DNA of 36,604 nucleotides from Candidatus Omnitrophota bacterium (GTDB lineage Bacteria > Omnitrophota > Gorgyraeia > Zapsychrales > Fredricksoniimonadaceae): NCBI GenBank assembly GCA_028865345.1, contig JAGWKL010000004.1, positions 143,422-180,025 on the forward strand, in the 5' to 3' direction. Position 1 is the first letter of the stretch. Every line of letters starts with the position of its first letter. The position numbers were made by a program, and so were the translations under genes. Below, one piece after another: positions 18,931 through 25,465 of this stretch. The notes below the pieces were generated by a model. It searched no databases, was not told where the DNA came from, and saw only the letters and a list, made by a program, of their open reading frames with translations.

Positions 18931-18958
18931 TTGACAGCCCACAAAGATATGGCATACT
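18931..18958 (+). promoter_or_regulatory. Sigma70-type promoter of the pilin operon
   Basis: A perfect -35 TTGACA (18931-18936) and a -10 CATACT (18953-18958) are separated by 16 bases. Transcription would begin near 18965, just at the 5' side of the riboswitch aptamer. Confidence 0.7.
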
Positions 18959-18969
18959 TAAACTAGACT

Positions 18970-19062
18970 GTTTTTGGCAAAACCAGCGAAAGCTGGTGAC
19001 GCAAAGGATCGGGCCTAAACCCCGCCTAAAACGCGGGGCACGGTAGTCGAGCTGCTGACGGT
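18970..19062 (+). ncRNA. GEMM-I (c-di-GMP type) riboswitch aptamer
   Basis: The core matches class I cyclic dinucleotide riboswitches. GGCAAA (18976-18981) leads into the P1b hairpin ACCAGC-GAAA-GCTGGT (18982-18997), directly followed by GACGCAAAG. The second half, CGGGCCTAAA, a CCCCGC/GCGGGG stem (19020-19038) and CGGTAGTCGAGCTGCTG, follows the family pattern. The base aligned with G20 of the Vc2 aptamer (18977) is G, which favours c-di-GMP over cGAMP. It lies between its own promoter and an intrinsic terminator, ahead of minor-pilin genes. Confidence 0.88.
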
Positions 19063-19080
19063 GATCTATATTCATTTTAT

Positions 19081-19126
19081 GACCCGAATGCTTCTCGCAC
19101 CTTTGTGAGAGACAATCGGGTTTTTT
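19081..19126 (+). terminator. Riboswitch expression-platform terminator
   Basis: ACCCGA (19082-19087) pairs with TCGGGT (19116-19121) and an inner CTCGCAC/GTGAGAG helix extends the stem. Six T residues follow at 19121-19126. The aptamer sequence TCGGGC (19009-19014) could compete for ACCCGA as an antiterminator, which would make bound ligand switch the operon off. Confidence 0.8.
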
Positions 19127-19168
19127 ATTGCGGCGGCAATGGAACCTAAGTACAATTAAAAAGGACTT

Positions 19169-19681
19169 ATGACTTTGAAAACCGGCAAATTTTGGGGCAC
19201 GCGAGGCGGTTTTACACTCGTGGAAGTGCTGGTGACCTTGGGGCTCGTGGTGATTTTTTTGCCCGTAGCAGGAGCCATCCTCACCAACAGCCAGATGGCG
19301 GCCTCCCTTTCGAAGCATAAAACCGAGGCCACTTATGCCGCCCAGCAGATCATCGAGGCCCAGCGCCAGGACCCGTTTGTCGTTCTGAGCTCCGGGCATT
19401 CACAGGTGACGGGCCCCTCTTGGGTGATCCTGGACACCAAAGGCAATTATAATAATTCCAATACCGGCGTTTGTAGCACCTATAACACCAATAACACTGT
19501 TTTCTGCGGCCAGGCGGTCGTGACCATAACACCCGCGGTTTATACCAGCACCTCCGGCACCAAAACGACCAGCACCACCGTCGACCATGTAGCGGTCCAG
19601 ATCTACTGGAACGAGAACCGGTTTATACATCCCAGCGTAACCTATGCCACGGATATAGCTAATGACCCGATGCTGAATTGA
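19169..19681 (+). CDS. Minor type IV pilin-like protein (PilV/GspI type)
   Basis: This 170-residue prepilin has the class III leader TRGG before FTLVEVLVTLGLVVIFLPVAG. Cleavage follows G14, with Phe at +1 and Glu at +5 as the prepilin peptidase requires. The rest is a hydrophobic helix and a beta-rich head with several Thr/Ser stretches. Family knowledge: minor pilins initiate or cap type IV pili or type II secretion pseudopili. AAAAAGGA lies just before the ATG. It is the first gene under the c-di-GMP-type riboswitch and is followed 4 bases later by a PilW-like gene. Confidence 0.85.
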   Translation: MTLKTGKFWGTRGGFTLVEVLVTLGLVVIFLPVAGAILTNSQMAASLSKHKTEATYAAQQIIEAQRQDPFVVLSSGHSQVTGPSWVILDTKGNYNNSNTGVCSTYNTNNTVFCGQAVVTITPAVYTSTSGTKTTSTTVDHVAVQIYWNENRFIHPSVTYATDIANDPMLN

Positions 19682-19685
19682 ACCT

Positions 19686-20336
19686 ATGGGCAAAACTATG
19701 AACAACAAGGCTTTTACTCTCCTGGAACTGCTGATGGCGGTCGGTGTCTCCGTGCTTTTGCTCACCGGGGTTTACGGTTTTTTTATTGTCTCCAACCAGA
19801 CTTATTCCGCAGGCGTCTCCGGAGAAAATCTCCAGGACGCAGCCAATACGATCCTTGGCAGGATCACGGAAGGAGATACGGAATCAGGCAACATTTACCG
19901 TTTAAGCACAGGCGTTTCTTTTATGGTCCCCAACGGTGTAGGAACGGCCTTGTATACGTGCGGAGGCTTGGCGCAAACAACTCCCTGCAACGCCACCTAT
20001 CCTTACAGCGAAATCTACTATTGCCAGGACAGTCCCTGCACACCTACTGATTCCACCGCCCGGTGGTATTATTTAAACGGCGCCGGAACTTCCATCATGT
20101 ATCACTATCCCGGCGAGCCTAACAATCAGGACATAACCCTTTACACGGCCCCCAGCGGCTCAACCTTATCCTTGCTGTTTTCTCCGGCCCAGGTGGGCAA
20201 TCCGGCACAGGCCTCGACGAAGGTCGTTGAAATCAATGTGGATTTGACACAGAACGTATCGAACAGCATAACGAACAGCCGCCTGAAAGCCAGCGGCGAC
20301 GCGTTGACCTATGTGCTTATGAGGAACCACCCATGA
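19686..20336 (+). CDS. Minor type IV pilin-like protein (PilW/GspJ type)
   Basis: This protein has up to 216 residues; Met5 (MNNKAF) is a likely alternative start. The leader NNKA is cleaved before FTLLELLMAVGVSVLLLTGVYGF, so Ala replaces Gly at -1 and Glu is at +5. SNQTYSAG and LQDAANTILGRI follow, as in PilW/GspJ. The globular part has paired cysteines (CGG and CNATYP, then CQDSPC). It overlaps the next gene by 4 bases (ATGA), so translation is coupled. Confidence 0.82.
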   Translation: MGKTMNNKAFTLLELLMAVGVSVLLLTGVYGFFIVSNQTYSAGVSGENLQDAANTILGRITEGDTESGNIYRLSTGVSFMVPNGVGTALYTCGGLAQTTPCNATYPYSEIYYCQDSPCTPTDSTARWYYLNGAGTSIMYHYPGEPNNQDITLYTAPSGSTLSLLFSPAQVGNPAQASTKVVEINVDLTQNVSNSITNSRLKASGDALTYVLMRNHP

Positions 20337-21799
20337 GACGCCTTCGACAAAATAATGCGTTTGCGTTTACCTTTGCCCTGATATTCCTGGCGATGATCAT
20401 TGCATTCCTGACGGTCTTTGTTTTTGCGGTCGTCAACGGGATCTCCGAGGCCAACCGCCTTGATGAGTCGAAGAAGGCATATTATACGGCCGAGGCGGGG
20501 CTTGCCGACGCGTACGAACGCATCGTGAACGCCGGTTTTGCCACTTTCGCCTCCAGCACCTGTTCCAATTCCAACATTCCGTCCACCTGCACCACCCCTT
20601 TTGTCCCTTCATCAACAACGGACAACGGCGTATACGCGGTGGGGAGCGTCAACGGCAGTTATACGGTTTCCCTCGTCTATTCAGGTTCGCCGCGGACCAA
20701 TTATGTGATCACTTCTCAAGGCACCTACGGCAACGTCACAAGGACCTTGCAGTTGAAAATGATCGCCGCTTCGTTTTCGCGGTATGCCTACTGGAGCCAG
20801 ACTGAAGTCAACCCCCAACTGGGAAAATTGTGGTGGATTTCAGGCATGCTGACCACCGGGCCCGTGCAAACCAACGGTTCGTTCAACATTTTCGGCAACC
20901 CGGTATTTAACGGCGCGGTGGCGGAGGTCGGTTCTTCGCCTGACTATTACTACGGGACGGGCACTGACCCCACTTCCTCAACAAAAAGCGACCCCAGCTA
21001 TATTTTTCCGGACGGCCTGACCAACAATGCTCCTGCCATCAATCTGCCGCCGACATCCACGCTTGCCAACTTTAAAACAGGGGCCACCAACGGCGGGTTG
21101 ACCCTGACGGGTGCCAGCACCGTGACCTTTAATTCCAACGGGACCATCAACGTCACGGGCAAGGTTGTCAATTCCAGTTGCCAGACCACGGCCAACTATA
21201 ACAACACAACCATGAACATCCCCGCGAGCGGGGTCGTCTACGTGCAAAGCACTAAAACCATTTCCGCCTGCAAATCTTCTTCGTCCGACGGCAATGTCAC
21301 CGTGCAAGGCACCGTCAACGGGCAGTTGACCGTGGCCGCGGACCAGAACGTCTATATCTCGGGCAATGTGCAGTACAACAGCAATCCCACCACCAACCCC
21401 TCGAGCACGGACATGGTGGGGCTGGTGGCTTACAACAATGTCACCGTAATCGAAGCCGACGCGCCCGCCCAACTGGCCGTTCAAGGGGTCATTGTCGCCC
21501 TGGGAGGCTCATTTGACGTGGACCAATATTCGAAAAACCCCGACCCGACCGGCAATTCATCGGCACCGGACGGCGCTAACATGTACCAATTCGGCAGTTT
21601 GGTCAATTACGCGAGCGGATGCACCGGCATTGTCAACTCCAGCGGGCAATTGATCGACGGATGGAACCAGATCCAGTCTTACGACACCCGGCTGGCCACG
21701 CTCGCCCCGCCGAGCTTTCCGCCGCTGGTCAACAGTGCGGGCCAGGGTGTTTATGTTAAATTAAGCATTACGGAATGCTTCTCAGGAACTTGCGGGTAA
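20333..21799 (+). CDS. PilX/GspK-like pilus assembly protein
   Basis: This 488-residue protein starts with a hydrophobic pilin-like helix (FAFTFALIFLAMIIAFLTVFVFA). It lacks Glu at +5, as GspK and several PilX proteins do. The motif ESKKAYYTAEAGLADAYERI is the PilX hallmark. The rest is a long, Ser/Thr/Asn-rich beta region (about 100-480) with polar repeats and scattered cysteines. It is far longer than typical PilX (about 200 residues). In type IV pilus operons the V-W-X order is standard and PilY1 often follows; here a different secreted protein takes that place. Confidence 0.75.
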   Translation: MRRLRQNNAFAFTFALIFLAMIIAFLTVFVFAVVNGISEANRLDESKKAYYTAEAGLADAYERIVNAGFATFASSTCSNSNIPSTCTTPFVPSSTTDNGVYAVGSVNGSYTVSLVYSGSPRTNYVITSQGTYGNVTRTLQLKMIAASFSRYAYWSQTEVNPQLGKLWWISGMLTTGPVQTNGSFNIFGNPVFNGAVAEVGSSPDYYYGTGTDPTSSTKSDPSYIFPDGLTNNAPAINLPPTSTLANFKTGATNGGLTLTGASTVTFNSNGTINVTGKVVNSSCQTTANYNNTTMNIPASGVVYVQSTKTISACKSSSSDGNVTVQGTVNGQLTVAADQNVYISGNVQYNSNPTTNPSSTDMVGLVAYNNVTVIEADAPAQLAVQGVIVALGGSFDVDQYSKNPDPTGNSSAPDGANMYQFGSLVNYASGCTGIVNSSGQLIDGWNQIQSYDTRLATLAPPSFPPLVNSAGQGVYVKLSITECFSGTCG

Positions 21800-21805
21800 A
21801 TACCT

Positions 21806-22888
21806 ATGAAAAAGAAAAATACAGTAATTAAATGGCTGTTGGGCGCGTTAATCCTATTGACGGCTGCCGGCTTCGGCCTTTTTCAAACTTCAAAGTACAT
21901 GGCCTCCGTAGAGATGGCAACCAATGCTTCTTTGCCCGGGGCATCCGCCTTGAGCTCGACAGGCGTCGGAGGCCAAAACGGTTTCTTTCAATCCCTGTTG
22001 AATTTCCTGGGGCTGGGAGGCCCCAACTCCCTGTTCGGCCGGTTTTTCCAGGGGAATAATGCCTCCACCCCCAACACACCAAACAATGGGTCACCACAAA
22101 ACCCGAATTCACCGGCCGCCAATATTTCACAGAGCAATAATTCAGGGAACTCCTCAGGCAATAATCCGGAAAACGGTCCGGGGAACAACTCAAATAATTC
22201 CTCTCAAGGCAACGCAGGGCAAGGGCCTGGAAATATGACAGGCAACAGTCCTGACAATAACACTTCCCCAACCAATACACAAAACAATCCCGGAGGGAAT
22301 TCGGGAAATAGCAATCTTGGCGACAATTCAGGAGGCAATTCGGGCGATAACTCGGGGGACAATTCGGGCGGCAATTCGGGCAACGGCTCGGGCGATAACT
22401 CGGGGGATAATTCCGGGAGCGGCTCGGGCAGCAATACGGGAGGCTCTTCAGGAGGCAACTCGGGCGGTAACTCGGGCGGTAACTCGGGTGGCAACTCGGG
22501 AAGCGGCTCCGGGAACAACTCAGGAAACAATAGCGGTGTGGAATATTGCGTTCCGGGCTGTTACCCGGGATGCATCCCCGGATGTGACCCGACATGCACG
22601 CCCCCATCATGCCAATTAGGCAACGTGGACCAGGGCAGCCTCCCTACGGCAAATCCCATCCCTACCACCACCGGCGTCGGGCAGGTGATCGCGCAACAGG
22701 ACCTGCAAATCCAATTGCTTACCGAACTGCTGGCAGAATACCAAACGCTGACCGGCCAAGTGATGCAAGCGGCCCAGGCCACCAAATATCAAACGGTTGA
22801 CTCCAATAATATTACACCAACCGACTCGACGCCGGCATCCGCCGATATAGTGACGAAAATCCAATCGGGGCAATTGATCCAACATTAA
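21806..22888 (+). CDS. Anchored low-complexity Gly/Asn/Ser-repeat protein with Cys ladder
   Basis: This 360-residue protein has a basic start and a single hydrophobic helix (about 9-26), so it is anchored or exported. Residues 84-165 are Asn/Pro/Ser/Gly-rich. Residues about 162-244 are a near-continuous run of (G/D)NSG tetrads. Then comes a six-cysteine stretch at 248, 252, 256, 260, 264 and 269, mostly xPGC spacing. A helical C-terminus rich in Gln (about 290-327) follows. No known family is recognised. It sits at the operon position usually held by PilY1, 6 bases after the PilX-like gene. A surface-exposed spacer with a disulfide- or metal-bonded knob is an inference. Confidence 0.75.
   Translation: MKKKNTVIKWLLGALILLTAAGFGLFQTSKYMASVEMATNASLPGASALSSTGVGGQNGFFQSLLNFLGLGGPNSLFGRFFQGNNASTPNTPNNGSPQNPNSPAANISQSNNSGNSSGNNPENGPGNNSNNSSQGNAGQGPGNMTGNSPDNNTSPTNTQNNPGGNSGNSNLGDNSGGNSGDNSGDNSGGNSGNGSGDNSGDNSGSGSGSNTGGSSGGNSGGNSGGNSGGNSGSGSGNNSGNNSGVEYCVPGCYPGCIPGCDPTCTPPSCQLGNVDQGSLPTANPIPTTTGVGQVIAQQDLQIQLLTELLAEYQTLTGQVMQAAQATKYQTVDSNNITPTDSTPASADIVTKIQSGQLIQH
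22289..22537 (+). repeat. In-frame short tandem repeat coding for (G/D)NSG units
   Basis: Repeated 12-base units such as GGCGGTAACTCG vary by third-position changes and keep the reading frame. Unit number is likely to vary by recombination or slippage. It lies wholly inside the 360-codon gene. Confidence 0.85.
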
Positions 22889-22969: not shown

Positions 22970-25465
22970 ATGATGAAAAGCCGATTTGTTAAATTTATCC
23001 GTGTCTACTGGAAAGGCATCCTGCTCTATGCCGTTTGCGCGGGGCTTGTGACCTTTCTGTTGATCTTTCTCTATTACGGCGGCACCAGCTTTTTAGGGAT
23101 GGAAGGCTTCTACCGCAAAAATATGATGGCCCAGATGGGCATCTACATGCTGGTCTTTTTGTTCGTCGGCATCGTACAAGCCTTTTTTTCCGCCTACATT
23201 TATATGTATTTCATGATGGGCGGCGGCATGAGTAAAATGCTCAGCAAGGACAGCGCTGAAAAAGGCAAGACGGACGTCCGCTGGGATGATGTCATCGGCC
23301 TGGAAAGCGCCAAGCGCGATGCCTGGGAAGTGGTGCAGTTCATCAAGGATTCCAATAAAGTCAAGGCCATGGGCGGCACCATGATCAAAGGCATCCTCAT
23401 GGTCGGGCCCCCGGGCTGCGGCAAAACCTACCTGGCCAAGGCCATCGCTTATGAATGCAAACTGCCCTTCCTGTCAGCCGTGGGCAGCGAATTCGTCGCC
23501 ATTTTCGTGGGCATGGGTGCTGCGCGCATCAAGTCCCTGTTTAAAAAGGCCCGGCAGCTGGCCGCCGTGGAAGGCGGTTGCCTGATCTTTATCGATGAGA
23601 TCGACGCCTTTGCCACCCCCCGCGTCGAGGAAACCACCGGATTCGGCGGGGGCATGTCGCACAATGCGGCCATCAACCAGTTCTTGACCGAATTAGACGG
23701 CTTAAGAAGACGCGAAAACAACATCGTGATCATTGCCGCCACCAATATGCCCCCGGAAAAACTGGACCCGGCCATCATGCGCTCGGGCCGTTTCGACCGC
23801 AAGATCACGGTGGAAAAACCCACGGCCCGTGAACGCGAAGAACTAATCCGTTATTATCTTAAAAAAATCGCCTGTGACCCTGCCATCGACGTGGCCTTGA
23901 TCGCGGAGAAGGCCCAATGGTTCTCCCCGGCGGACATCCATAACATGGTGCGCGAGGCGAGTGTGCTGGCCATGAGGGAACGGCGCTCCACAACCACCCA
24001 GGACGACCTCTTGAAGGCGATGAACGATGTCATGGCCAACATCGAAAAAACCGGCGAGGAGAAGATCCTTTCCAATAAGGTCAATGTCAAATGGGATGAG
24101 GTCATCGGCATGACCAGCGCCAAGGAAGAGGCCTGGGAGCTGGTGGACCTTTTAAAGGACCGCAACCGCGTCAAAAGTGTCGGCGGCAAGATCGTCAAAG
24201 GCATCCTGTTGCTGGGCCCGCCCGGCTGCGGCAAAACATATTTGGCCAAGGCCATGGCCACGGAATCAGGCTTTCCATTTGTCTCGGCCATGGGCTCTGA
24301 CCTGGTCGGCGTTTTTGTGGGTGAAGGCGCCAAAAAGATGAAAAGCATATTCAAGGAAGCGCGCCAGCTGGCCCGCGCCGAAGGCGGATGCATCATCTTC
24401 TTCGATGAGATCGACAGCTTCGCCACCCACCGCGTCGAGGAACGCGGCTACGGCGGAGGCATATCCCATAACGCCACCATCAACCAGTTCCTGACGGAAT
24501 TGGACGGCCTGCGCCAGCAGGAAAACAACATCGTGATCATTGCCGCCACCAACGTTTCGGAAGACAAGCTGGATCCTGCCGTATTGCGCGCCGGGCGCAT
24601 CGAACGCAAAATCTACGTCAATCTCCCCAACCTGAAGGAACGTATCGACCTTTTCAAATTTTATTTGAGCAAGGTCAAGACCGATGCAAGCGTCAATTCC
24701 GACATGCTTGGACGCAAGACGCTGTGGTTTTCTCCTTCGGACATCGACAGCATGATCCGCGAGGCGGGCCTCATTGCCCTGCGCGACAAACGCGACTATG
24801 TCAACAACAAAGACCTTTCCGCCGCCTATGACCGCATCCTTTACGGCGCCAAATCCAATACCATCTTAAGCGACGCGGAAAAAGAATGGGTAGCGTATCA
24901 CGAATCCGGCCATGCCATCATCGGTTACATGCTGCATCCCACCGACGATGTCATCAAAGCCACCATTATTCCCCGTAAAGGGGCGCTGGGTTTTGTCGCA
25001 CCCCGGCCGCGCGAAGAGGTGCATATCCAGAAAAAGGAATGGTTCCTGGCGCAAATCAAGGTGGTGCTTGCCTCCTATGCCGCCGAGACCATAAAATACG
25101 GCACCACCGGCTCCGGCGTCGGGGGGGATTTCCAGACCGCCATGTGGTTTGCCCACAGCATGGTGTGGAAATACGGCATGGGCAAATCCGGCCGCCTGGG
25201 CAACTGGGACAATCTGGTGATGGCCTACGGCCAGACATTTATTTCGGAAAAAACCAAGGAAGTCTTGAACGACGACGTGCAGTCCATCCTGCAGGAATGT
25301 TTGACCGAAGTCACCGGCATTTTGACCCAAAACCGTCAACTACTGGACTCTTTCGCCCAGGAACTTTTGTCCAAAGGCGAATTGGAATATGATGAAATCG
25401 AAGCCATCTTTCAAAAATTCGGGATCAAACCGTCCTCGCGCCCGCCGATCCTGGCGACTCCTTAA
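22970..25465 (+). CDS. FtsH-like membrane metalloprotease with two AAA+ modules
   Basis: This 831-residue protein has two N-terminal membrane helices (about 16-36 and 56-80) with a short loop of about 20 residues instead of FtsH's larger periplasmic domain. AAA module D1 has Walker A GPPGCGKT (146-153), pore loop IFVGMG, Walker B LIFIDEID (205-212) and RSGRFDR. Module D2 has GPPGCGKT (416-423), VFVGEG, IIFFDEID (475-482) and RAGRIER. The two modules are 270 residues apart and clearly related. The M41 peptidase domain has HESGH (644-648) and D720 in GVGGD as third zinc ligand. FtsH normally has one AAA module and about 600-650 residues, so the second ring is the novel feature. A lipoprotein gene overlaps its 3' end. 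Confidence 0.93.
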   Translation: MMKSRFVKFIRVYWKGILLYAVCAGLVTFLLIFLYYGGTSFLGMEGFYRKNMMAQMGIYMLVFLFVGIVQAFFSAYIYMYFMMGGGMSKMLSKDSAEKGKTDVRWDDVIGLESAKRDAWEVVQFIKDSNKVKAMGGTMIKGILMVGPPGCGKTYLAKAIAYECKLPFLSAVGSEFVAIFVGMGAARIKSLFKKARQLAAVEGGCLIFIDEIDAFATPRVEETTGFGGGMSHNAAINQFLTELDGLRRRENNIVIIAATNMPPEKLDPAIMRSGRFDRKITVEKPTAREREELIRYYLKKIACDPAIDVALIAEKAQWFSPADIHNMVREASVLAMRERRSTTTQDDLLKAMNDVMANIEKTGEEKILSNKVNVKWDEVIGMTSAKEEAWELVDLLKDRNRVKSVGGKIVKGILLLGPPGCGKTYLAKAMATESGFPFVSAMGSDLVGVFVGEGAKKMKSIFKEARQLARAEGGCIIFFDEIDSFATHRVEERGYGGGISHNATINQFLTELDGLRQQENNIVIIAATNVSEDKLDPAVLRAGRIERKIYVNLPNLKERIDLFKFYLSKVKTDASVNSDMLGRKTLWFSPSDIDSMIREAGLIALRDKRDYVNNKDLSAAYDRILYGAKSNTILSDAEKEWVAYHESGHAIIGYMLHPTDDVIKATIIPRKGALGFVAPRPREEVHIQKKEWFLAQIKVVLASYAAETIKYGTTGSGVGGDFQTAMWFAHSMVWKYGMGKSGRLGNWDNLVMAYGQTFISEKTKEVLNDDVQSILQECLTEVTGILTQNRQLLDSFAQELLSKGELEYDEIEAIFQKFGIKPSSRPPILATP

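What the first reader, a model, noticed from the sequence alone, without database searches (positions are those of the whole stretch)
18931..22888. c-di-GMP-type riboswitch controls a minor-pilin operon with a novel fourth gene
A promoter, GEMM-I aptamer and intrinsic terminator lie in order before PilV-, PilW- and PilX-like genes. The aptamer sequence TCGGGC (19009-19014) can pair with the 5' terminator arm ACCCGA, giving a possible antiterminator. Ligand binding would then favour termination. This would tie pilus assembly directly to second-messenger level. The G at 18977, aligned with Vc2 G20, favours c-di-GMP over cGAMP.
Basis: partly seen in the sequence, partly recalled or inferred. Interest (0 to 1): 0.8.

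Follow-up and report, generated by a model that had tools for sequence, protein, structure and literature searches.

The report
c-di-GMP riboswitch before minor-pilin operon
In an uncultured Omnitrophota bacterium, a known type of RNA sensor for the signal molecule c-di-GMP, with an unusual ligand pocket, sits in front of a four-gene set for minor pilus parts; similar sensors precede pilin genes across its order, so this is a good new example of a known kind of switch rather than a new kind.

Summary
A GEMM-I (RF01051) aptamer lies at 18966-19059 (60.5 bits, cut-off 35), after a TTGACA-16-CATACT promoter and before a strong terminator (19082-19126) and a pilV-pilW-pilX-like operon with a fourth gene. 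A congener (G003) keeps promoter, aptamer (with compensatory changes), terminator and operon. The genome is Omnitrophota, with four GEMM-I elements and canonical GGDEF and EAL domains. 50 of 55 genomes of the order carry GEMM-I, and 30 of 118 elements precede prepilin genes: the wiring is recurrent.

Corrections: (1) Vc2 G20 is 18976, not 18977. (2) Near-invariant A17/A18 are both U here and in G003 (3 of 122 elements); the A18 counterpart contacts ligand in simulations, so affinity or specificity needs measuring. (3) The proposed antiterminator (UCGGGC:ACCCGA) is no better than chance; a longer pairing that also opens P2 is modestly better. OFF polarity is likely but unproved. (4) The fourth gene has no known family but is no orphan: a membrane-protein gene closes this operon in every orthologous operon that could be read; its Asn/Gly/Ser repeat is genus-specific.

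New member of a known kind.

The parts
18931..18958 (+). Promoter: -35 TTGACA, 16-nt spacer, -10 CATACT with TG before it; transcript should begin at about the first base of the aptamer
   Evidence: hexamers and spacing conserved in G003
18966..19059 (+). GEMM-I (c-di-GMP-I) aptamer
   Evidence: RF01051 60.5 bits; lineage model R1 65.4 bits; G003 orthologue 61.1 bits with compensatory changes
18971..18975 (+). U-tract in J1/2 replacing the A-rich stretch (Vc2 15-19, including A17 and A18)
18976..18976 (+). G equivalent to Vc2 G20 (c-di-GMP-type discriminator base)
   Evidence: with PMC3764141 numbering
18982..18997 (+). P2 outer hairpin with GAAA tetraloop; its loop strand 18986-18993 can also pair with 19090-19098
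19003..19005 (+). A47-A49 of J2/3
19009..19013 (+).
   Evidence: present, but not above chance as an antiterminator by itself
19055..19055 (+). C equivalent to Vc2 C92
19082..19126 (+). Intrinsic terminator (stem 19082-19121, T run to 19126)
   Evidence: conserved in G003
19169..19681 (+). pilV-like minor prepilin, 170 aa
19686..20336 (+). pilW-like minor prepilin, 216 aa
   Evidence: orthologues
20333..21799 (+). pilX-like protein with DUF4900, 488 aa, N-terminal segment without the Glu5 of prepilins
   Evidence: orthologues
21806..22888 (+). Fourth gene: N-terminal membrane segment, Asn/Gly/Ser repeat, conserved C-terminus, 360 aa

Best explanation
A class I c-di-GMP riboswitch controls a four-gene minor-pilin operon in cis by transcription attenuation. 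Transcription starts at the aptamer. Without ligand, strands that the folded aptamer would hold (P2 loop strand 18986-18993, J2/3 19002-19007, P3 5' strand 19009-19013) can pair with the 5' half of the terminator, in one of several registers, and let polymerase through. Shown: aptamer, promoter, terminator, operon, conservation in a congener, recurrence of the wiring. Inferred: ligand, polarity (OFF, about 0.6), antiterminator register, and that the proteins act as minor pilins.
For: RF01051 match; layout and compensatory changes kept in G003; G20, A47-A49 and C92 kept; seven GGDEF and two EAL matches in the genome, the five GGDEFs read having the canonical guanine-site residues; recurrent GEMM-I before prepilin genes, 30 of 118 against 1 of 34 controls, and before pilVWX-type operons in several lineages; whole-aptamer complementarity to own terminators above swapped ones, 0 of 5000 permutations, 82 of 5000 in a non-redundant set; window pairing reached by 89 of 2000 shuffles; ON and OFF attenuation precedents pilM and Cd1 (PMC9262584).
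Against: A17/A18 are U; P1 is short and weak; the terminator fold is 9.6-10.7 kcal/mol better than the best fold without it, so read-through would have to be kinetic; no single antiterminator register is compelling; eight or more orthologous operons lack a detectable GEMM-I; no expression data.
Confidence: 0.62

Rival explanations
1. The element is a GEMM-I variant with changed ligand preference or a much higher threshold. The U-tract replaces A17/A18 in the pocket and can pair with A47-G51 in the free RNA, so it may answer another cyclic dinucleotide or only high c-di-GMP.
For: U17/U18 together in only 3 of 122 elements yet kept in G003; the A18 counterpart contacts ligand in simulations of the cGAMP riboswitch (PMC6274999); predicted pairing of UUUUU with AAAGG; L098, another minor-pilin element with the same P3, has A20.
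Against: G20, A47, A48 and C92 are canonical; L152 has the same U-tract in an otherwise canonical aptamer, so it may simply be tolerated; the genome's GGDEF domains look like ordinary diguanylate cyclases.
Confidence: 0.2
2. An ON switch: ligand binding prevents termination, as in Geobacter pilM.
For: Eight other elements of the survey have the terminator overlapping the aptamer's 3' end, the ON layout; pilM precedent (PMC9262584).
Against: Here the terminator starts about 21 nt beyond the aptamer and shares no base with P1, J3/1 or C92; all candidate competing strands lie inside the ligand-organised core.
Confidence: 0.13
3. A decayed riboswitch: a structured leader with an essentially constitutive terminator that no longer senses anything.
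For: Near-invariant bases lost, weak P1, very stable terminator, and most orthologous operons lack GEMM-I.
Against: Compensatory changes in P2 and the outer P3 stem against G003 while the sequence upstream of the promoter has diverged; all four ORFs are intact in both genomes.
Confidence: 0.1

Closest known systems
GEMM-I / c-di-GMP-I riboswitch (RF01051), e.g. Vc2 and Cd1
   Same: Full covariance-model match, P2 with GNRA loop, J2/3 AAA, G20, C92; like Cd1, an attenuator layout in which the terminator is separate from the aptamer (PMC9262584)
   Different: U17/U18 instead of A17/A18, U93, a P3 signature GGAUCGGGCC/GGYAGUCGAGC shared with L098 and L091 only in this survey
GEMM-Ib / 3',3'-cGAMP riboswitch of Geobacter (pilM, PMC9262584)
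   Same: GEMM-I fold controlling pilus genes through a terminator
   Different: G, not A, at position 20; the terminator does not overlap the aptamer's 3' end
pilV-pilW-pilX minor-pilin operons
   Same: Gene order and prepilin N-termini
   Different: Third gene carries DUF4900; a fourth membrane-protein gene follows; the match to PilV is below its cut-off. Comparison with known operons rests on general knowledge

Membership tests
GEMM-I riboswitch (RF01051) | Match to the covariance model above the gathering score | tested here: met
   60.5 against 35 bits, full length
GEMM-I riboswitch (RF01051) | Ligand-contact bases G20, A47, C92 (Vc2) | tested here: met
   18976 G, 19003 A, 19055 C
GEMM-I riboswitch (RF01051) | Near-invariant A17 and A18 in J1/2 | tested here: not met
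   Both U; A17 in 113 and A18 in 108 of 120 relatives. A soft, not a defining, feature of the family model
GEMM-I riboswitch (RF01051) | Structure kept by compensatory changes | tested here: met
   P2 and outer P3 stem against G003; only one close relative, so few events
GEMM-I riboswitch (RF01051) | Binding of c-di-GMP | not testable with these tools
   Needs in-line probing or ITC
GEMM-Ib (cGAMP) riboswitch | A at position 20 | tested here: not met
   G at 18976
OFF attenuator of the Cd1 kind | Antiterminator that excludes the ligand-bound aptamer | tested here: inconclusive
pilV-pilW-pilX minor-pilin operon | Consecutive genes with prepilin N-termini followed by a PilX-like gene | tested here: met
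   gene 3 assigned by N-terminus, DUF4900 and position, PilX_N itself not matched
pilV-pilW-pilX minor-pilin operon | Proteins are assembled into a type IV pilus | not testable with these tools
   The genome has several full-length T2SSE-family ATPases, so a pilus or type II secretion machine is available

The most novel reading that the evidence does not exclude
The riboswitches of pilVWX-type minor-pilin operons in this Omnitrophota family are GEMM-I variants with altered J1/2 pockets (U17/U18 here, A20 in G010, a shortened J1/2 in one genus) that read c-di-GMP at a different threshold or read another cyclic dinucleotide, and an antiterminator that opens P2 is the usual expression platform in the order.
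Probability: 0.15. Interest if true: 0.65.

Novelty: new member of a known kind. Interest (0 to 1): 0.38.

Why it matters
If right, it ties type IV pilus genes directly to a cyclic-dinucleotide signal by RNA across an order of a largely uncultured phylum; no paper in the searched library mentions riboswitches together with Omnitrophota. The natural U17/U18 pair is a test of how much of the GEMM-I pocket is dispensable, and the roughly 120 aptamers, 83 of them paired with a separate terminator, make the expression platform open to comparative and experimental test.

Tried and rejected
CUUUG in terminators as a partner of the J2/3 CAAAG: enriched (9 of 82; 2 of 300 shuffles reach it), but several of the elements are close relatives, so only suggestive. 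Arm pairing in truncated folds: 70 of 83 against about 61 with swapped terminators, little power. First pattern search for the U-tract had one N too many and found nothing; repeated correctly. First aptamer alignment had six elements on the wrong strand; redone. Literature on Vc2 A18 mutants: none in the library. One family search failed on wrong coordinates and was replaced. Names of G handles are hidden; the phylum comes from GenBank titles of contigs that carry the orthologous operon, among them ones with the contig lengths of G003, G005, G009 and G027.

Full report
What is there. The window comes from a 2.1 Mb Omnitrophota genome bin (94.7% complete; phylum from contig titles of orthologous loci). 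cmscan puts one GEMM-I aptamer at 18966-19059, 60.5 bits. Upstream is TTGACA-16-CATACT ending at 18958, so transcription should begin at about the aptamer's first base. About 21 nt after the aptamer is a terminator of about -21 kcal/mol, then four ORFs in one direction. The first two have prepilin N-termini, the third has DUF4900 and a PilX-like N-terminus, the fourth matches nothing in Pfam or NCBIfam.

Is it real. The same-genus genome G003 has the same layout: promoter hexamers and spacing, aptamer (61.1 bits), terminator and the four genes (83%, 77% and 52% identity for genes 3, 2 and 4). P2 differs by a compensatory C-G to U-A change and the outer P3 stem by several, while the sequence upstream of the promoter has diverged. 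That is what selection on the RNA fold gives, though it is one close pair of genomes.

Wider distribution. The genome has four GEMM-I elements. Of 55 genomes of the same order or closer, this one included, 50 have at least one and some have 14. I fetched and aligned 120 elements with a lineage model. Thirty of 118 unique elements have a prepilin-type gene within 1 kb downstream, against 1 of 34 upstream stretches. pilV-pilW-pilX operons behind GEMM-I appear in G010 (L098), in elements of another genus of the family (L078, L083, L086, L088) and in other families of the order (L111, L106, L120). The orthologous operon of the Omnitrophota MAG nzgw300 has a GEMM-I with an insertion after P2, and a terminator, in its leader (L157; 26 bits, E 0.0005 for the leader alone, below the gathering score). 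Orthologous operons in G005, G009, G027, G017 and four further MAGs (L158, L159, L160, L162) gave no match, nor did the contigs held for G019. So the wiring is old or repeatedly gained, and not universal.

Ligand pocket. Position 93 is U instead of C, facing G14 here and A14 in G003. The unexpected feature is UUUUU at 18971-18975. A17 is present in 113 and A18 in 108 of 120 elements; only the window and G003 have U at both. A pattern search in 384 genomes of the phylum found one more such case, L152, with a canonical P3, and a shortened look-alike, L151. The A18 counterpart (A12) in the 3',3'-cGAMP riboswitch makes high-occupancy hydrogen bonds to the ligand in simulation (PMC6274999). So c-di-GMP is the likeliest ligand, but affinity cannot be assumed. 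P3 has its own signature, GGAUCGGGCC...GGYAGUCGAGC, shared with L098 and L091, which have a different J1/2 and different terminators.

How it may switch. Over the whole aptamer, own terminators do fit better (z -6.4, none of 5000 permutations; 82 of 5000 in 23 non-redundant elements), and the P2 3' side carries part of it (z -3.9; non-redundant 348 of 5000, not significant on its own). For the stretch from P2 loop to P3 5' strand against the first 21 nt of the terminator, the best duplex is -18.2, reached by 89 of 2000 dinucleotide shuffles (50 of 2000 for G003). A competing register pairs CAAAGG with CCUUUG in the terminator loop. All these strands belong to the ligand-organised core, so binding should free the terminator: an OFF switch. 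The terminator fold is 9.6-10.7 kcal/mol better than the best fold without it, so read-through must be kinetic; this is near the average for the class (mean 8.5). In eight other elements the terminator takes in the aptamer's 3' end, the ON layout of pilM (PMC9262584).

Signal. The genome has seven GGDEF and two EAL matches. Five GGDEF domains could be read around the signature and have the guanine-site Asn and Asp of ordinary diguanylate cyclases, not the Ser expected of cGAMP-making Hypr enzymes (the residue rule is from general knowledge).

Fourth gene. In the orthologous operons that could be read past gene 3 (L054, L055, L056, L057 cut short, L058, L157-L160, L162) a fourth gene follows, with an N-terminal membrane segment and, in most, a recognisable short C-terminal motif; the long Asn/Gly/Ser repeat is seen only in this genus. 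L098 also has a small fourth gene with a membrane segment, otherwise hardly alignable. It is best regarded as a conserved partner of the minor pilins of unknown role.

Verdict. A GEMM-I riboswitch before a minor-pilin operon, apparently unreported in this phylum as far as the searched library shows, with an unusual pocket.

Noticed in passing
L003:1501-1583 (G000:C35:17527-17609), L087:2295-2373, L093:2314-2394: GEMM-I elements with A at the Vc2-20 position (the GEMM-Ib base) before a response-regulator gene in three genomes of the genus, in a lineage whose other elements mostly have G20; L003 also has a very strong antiterminator (GAGGGAUAGG in P3 against the terminator arm CCUAUUCCUU).
   Followed up: partly
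window 22970-25465: FtsH-like protein with two AAA modules and one M41 peptidase domain (HESGH), next to the operon and kept there in G003 and G005.
   Followed up: no
L105:169-246 and 311-388: Two GEMM-I aptamers in tandem, 64 nt apart, before the same gene (G039).
   Followed up: no
L078:2244-2321, L083:189-266, L086:2303-2380, L088:209-286: GEMM-I elements before pilVWX-type operons whose J1/2 reads GAUACCGC, one base shorter than usual and without a clear G20.
   Followed up: partly
L002:1595-1725 (G000:C39): Another GEMM-I of the same genome is followed by a long inverted repeat that holds the ribosome-binding site and start codon (GCATTTCGCCC/GGGCGAAATGC), suggesting translational control.
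   Followed up: no
L001:1501-1590 and L087:2295-2373: Start codon within about 12 nt of the aptamer's end and no terminator between, suggesting direct translational control.
   Followed up: no
L104, L036, L142, L017, L103, L108, L114, L091: Terminator 5' arm overlaps the aptamer's 3' end, the layout of ON switches such as pilM.
   Followed up: partly
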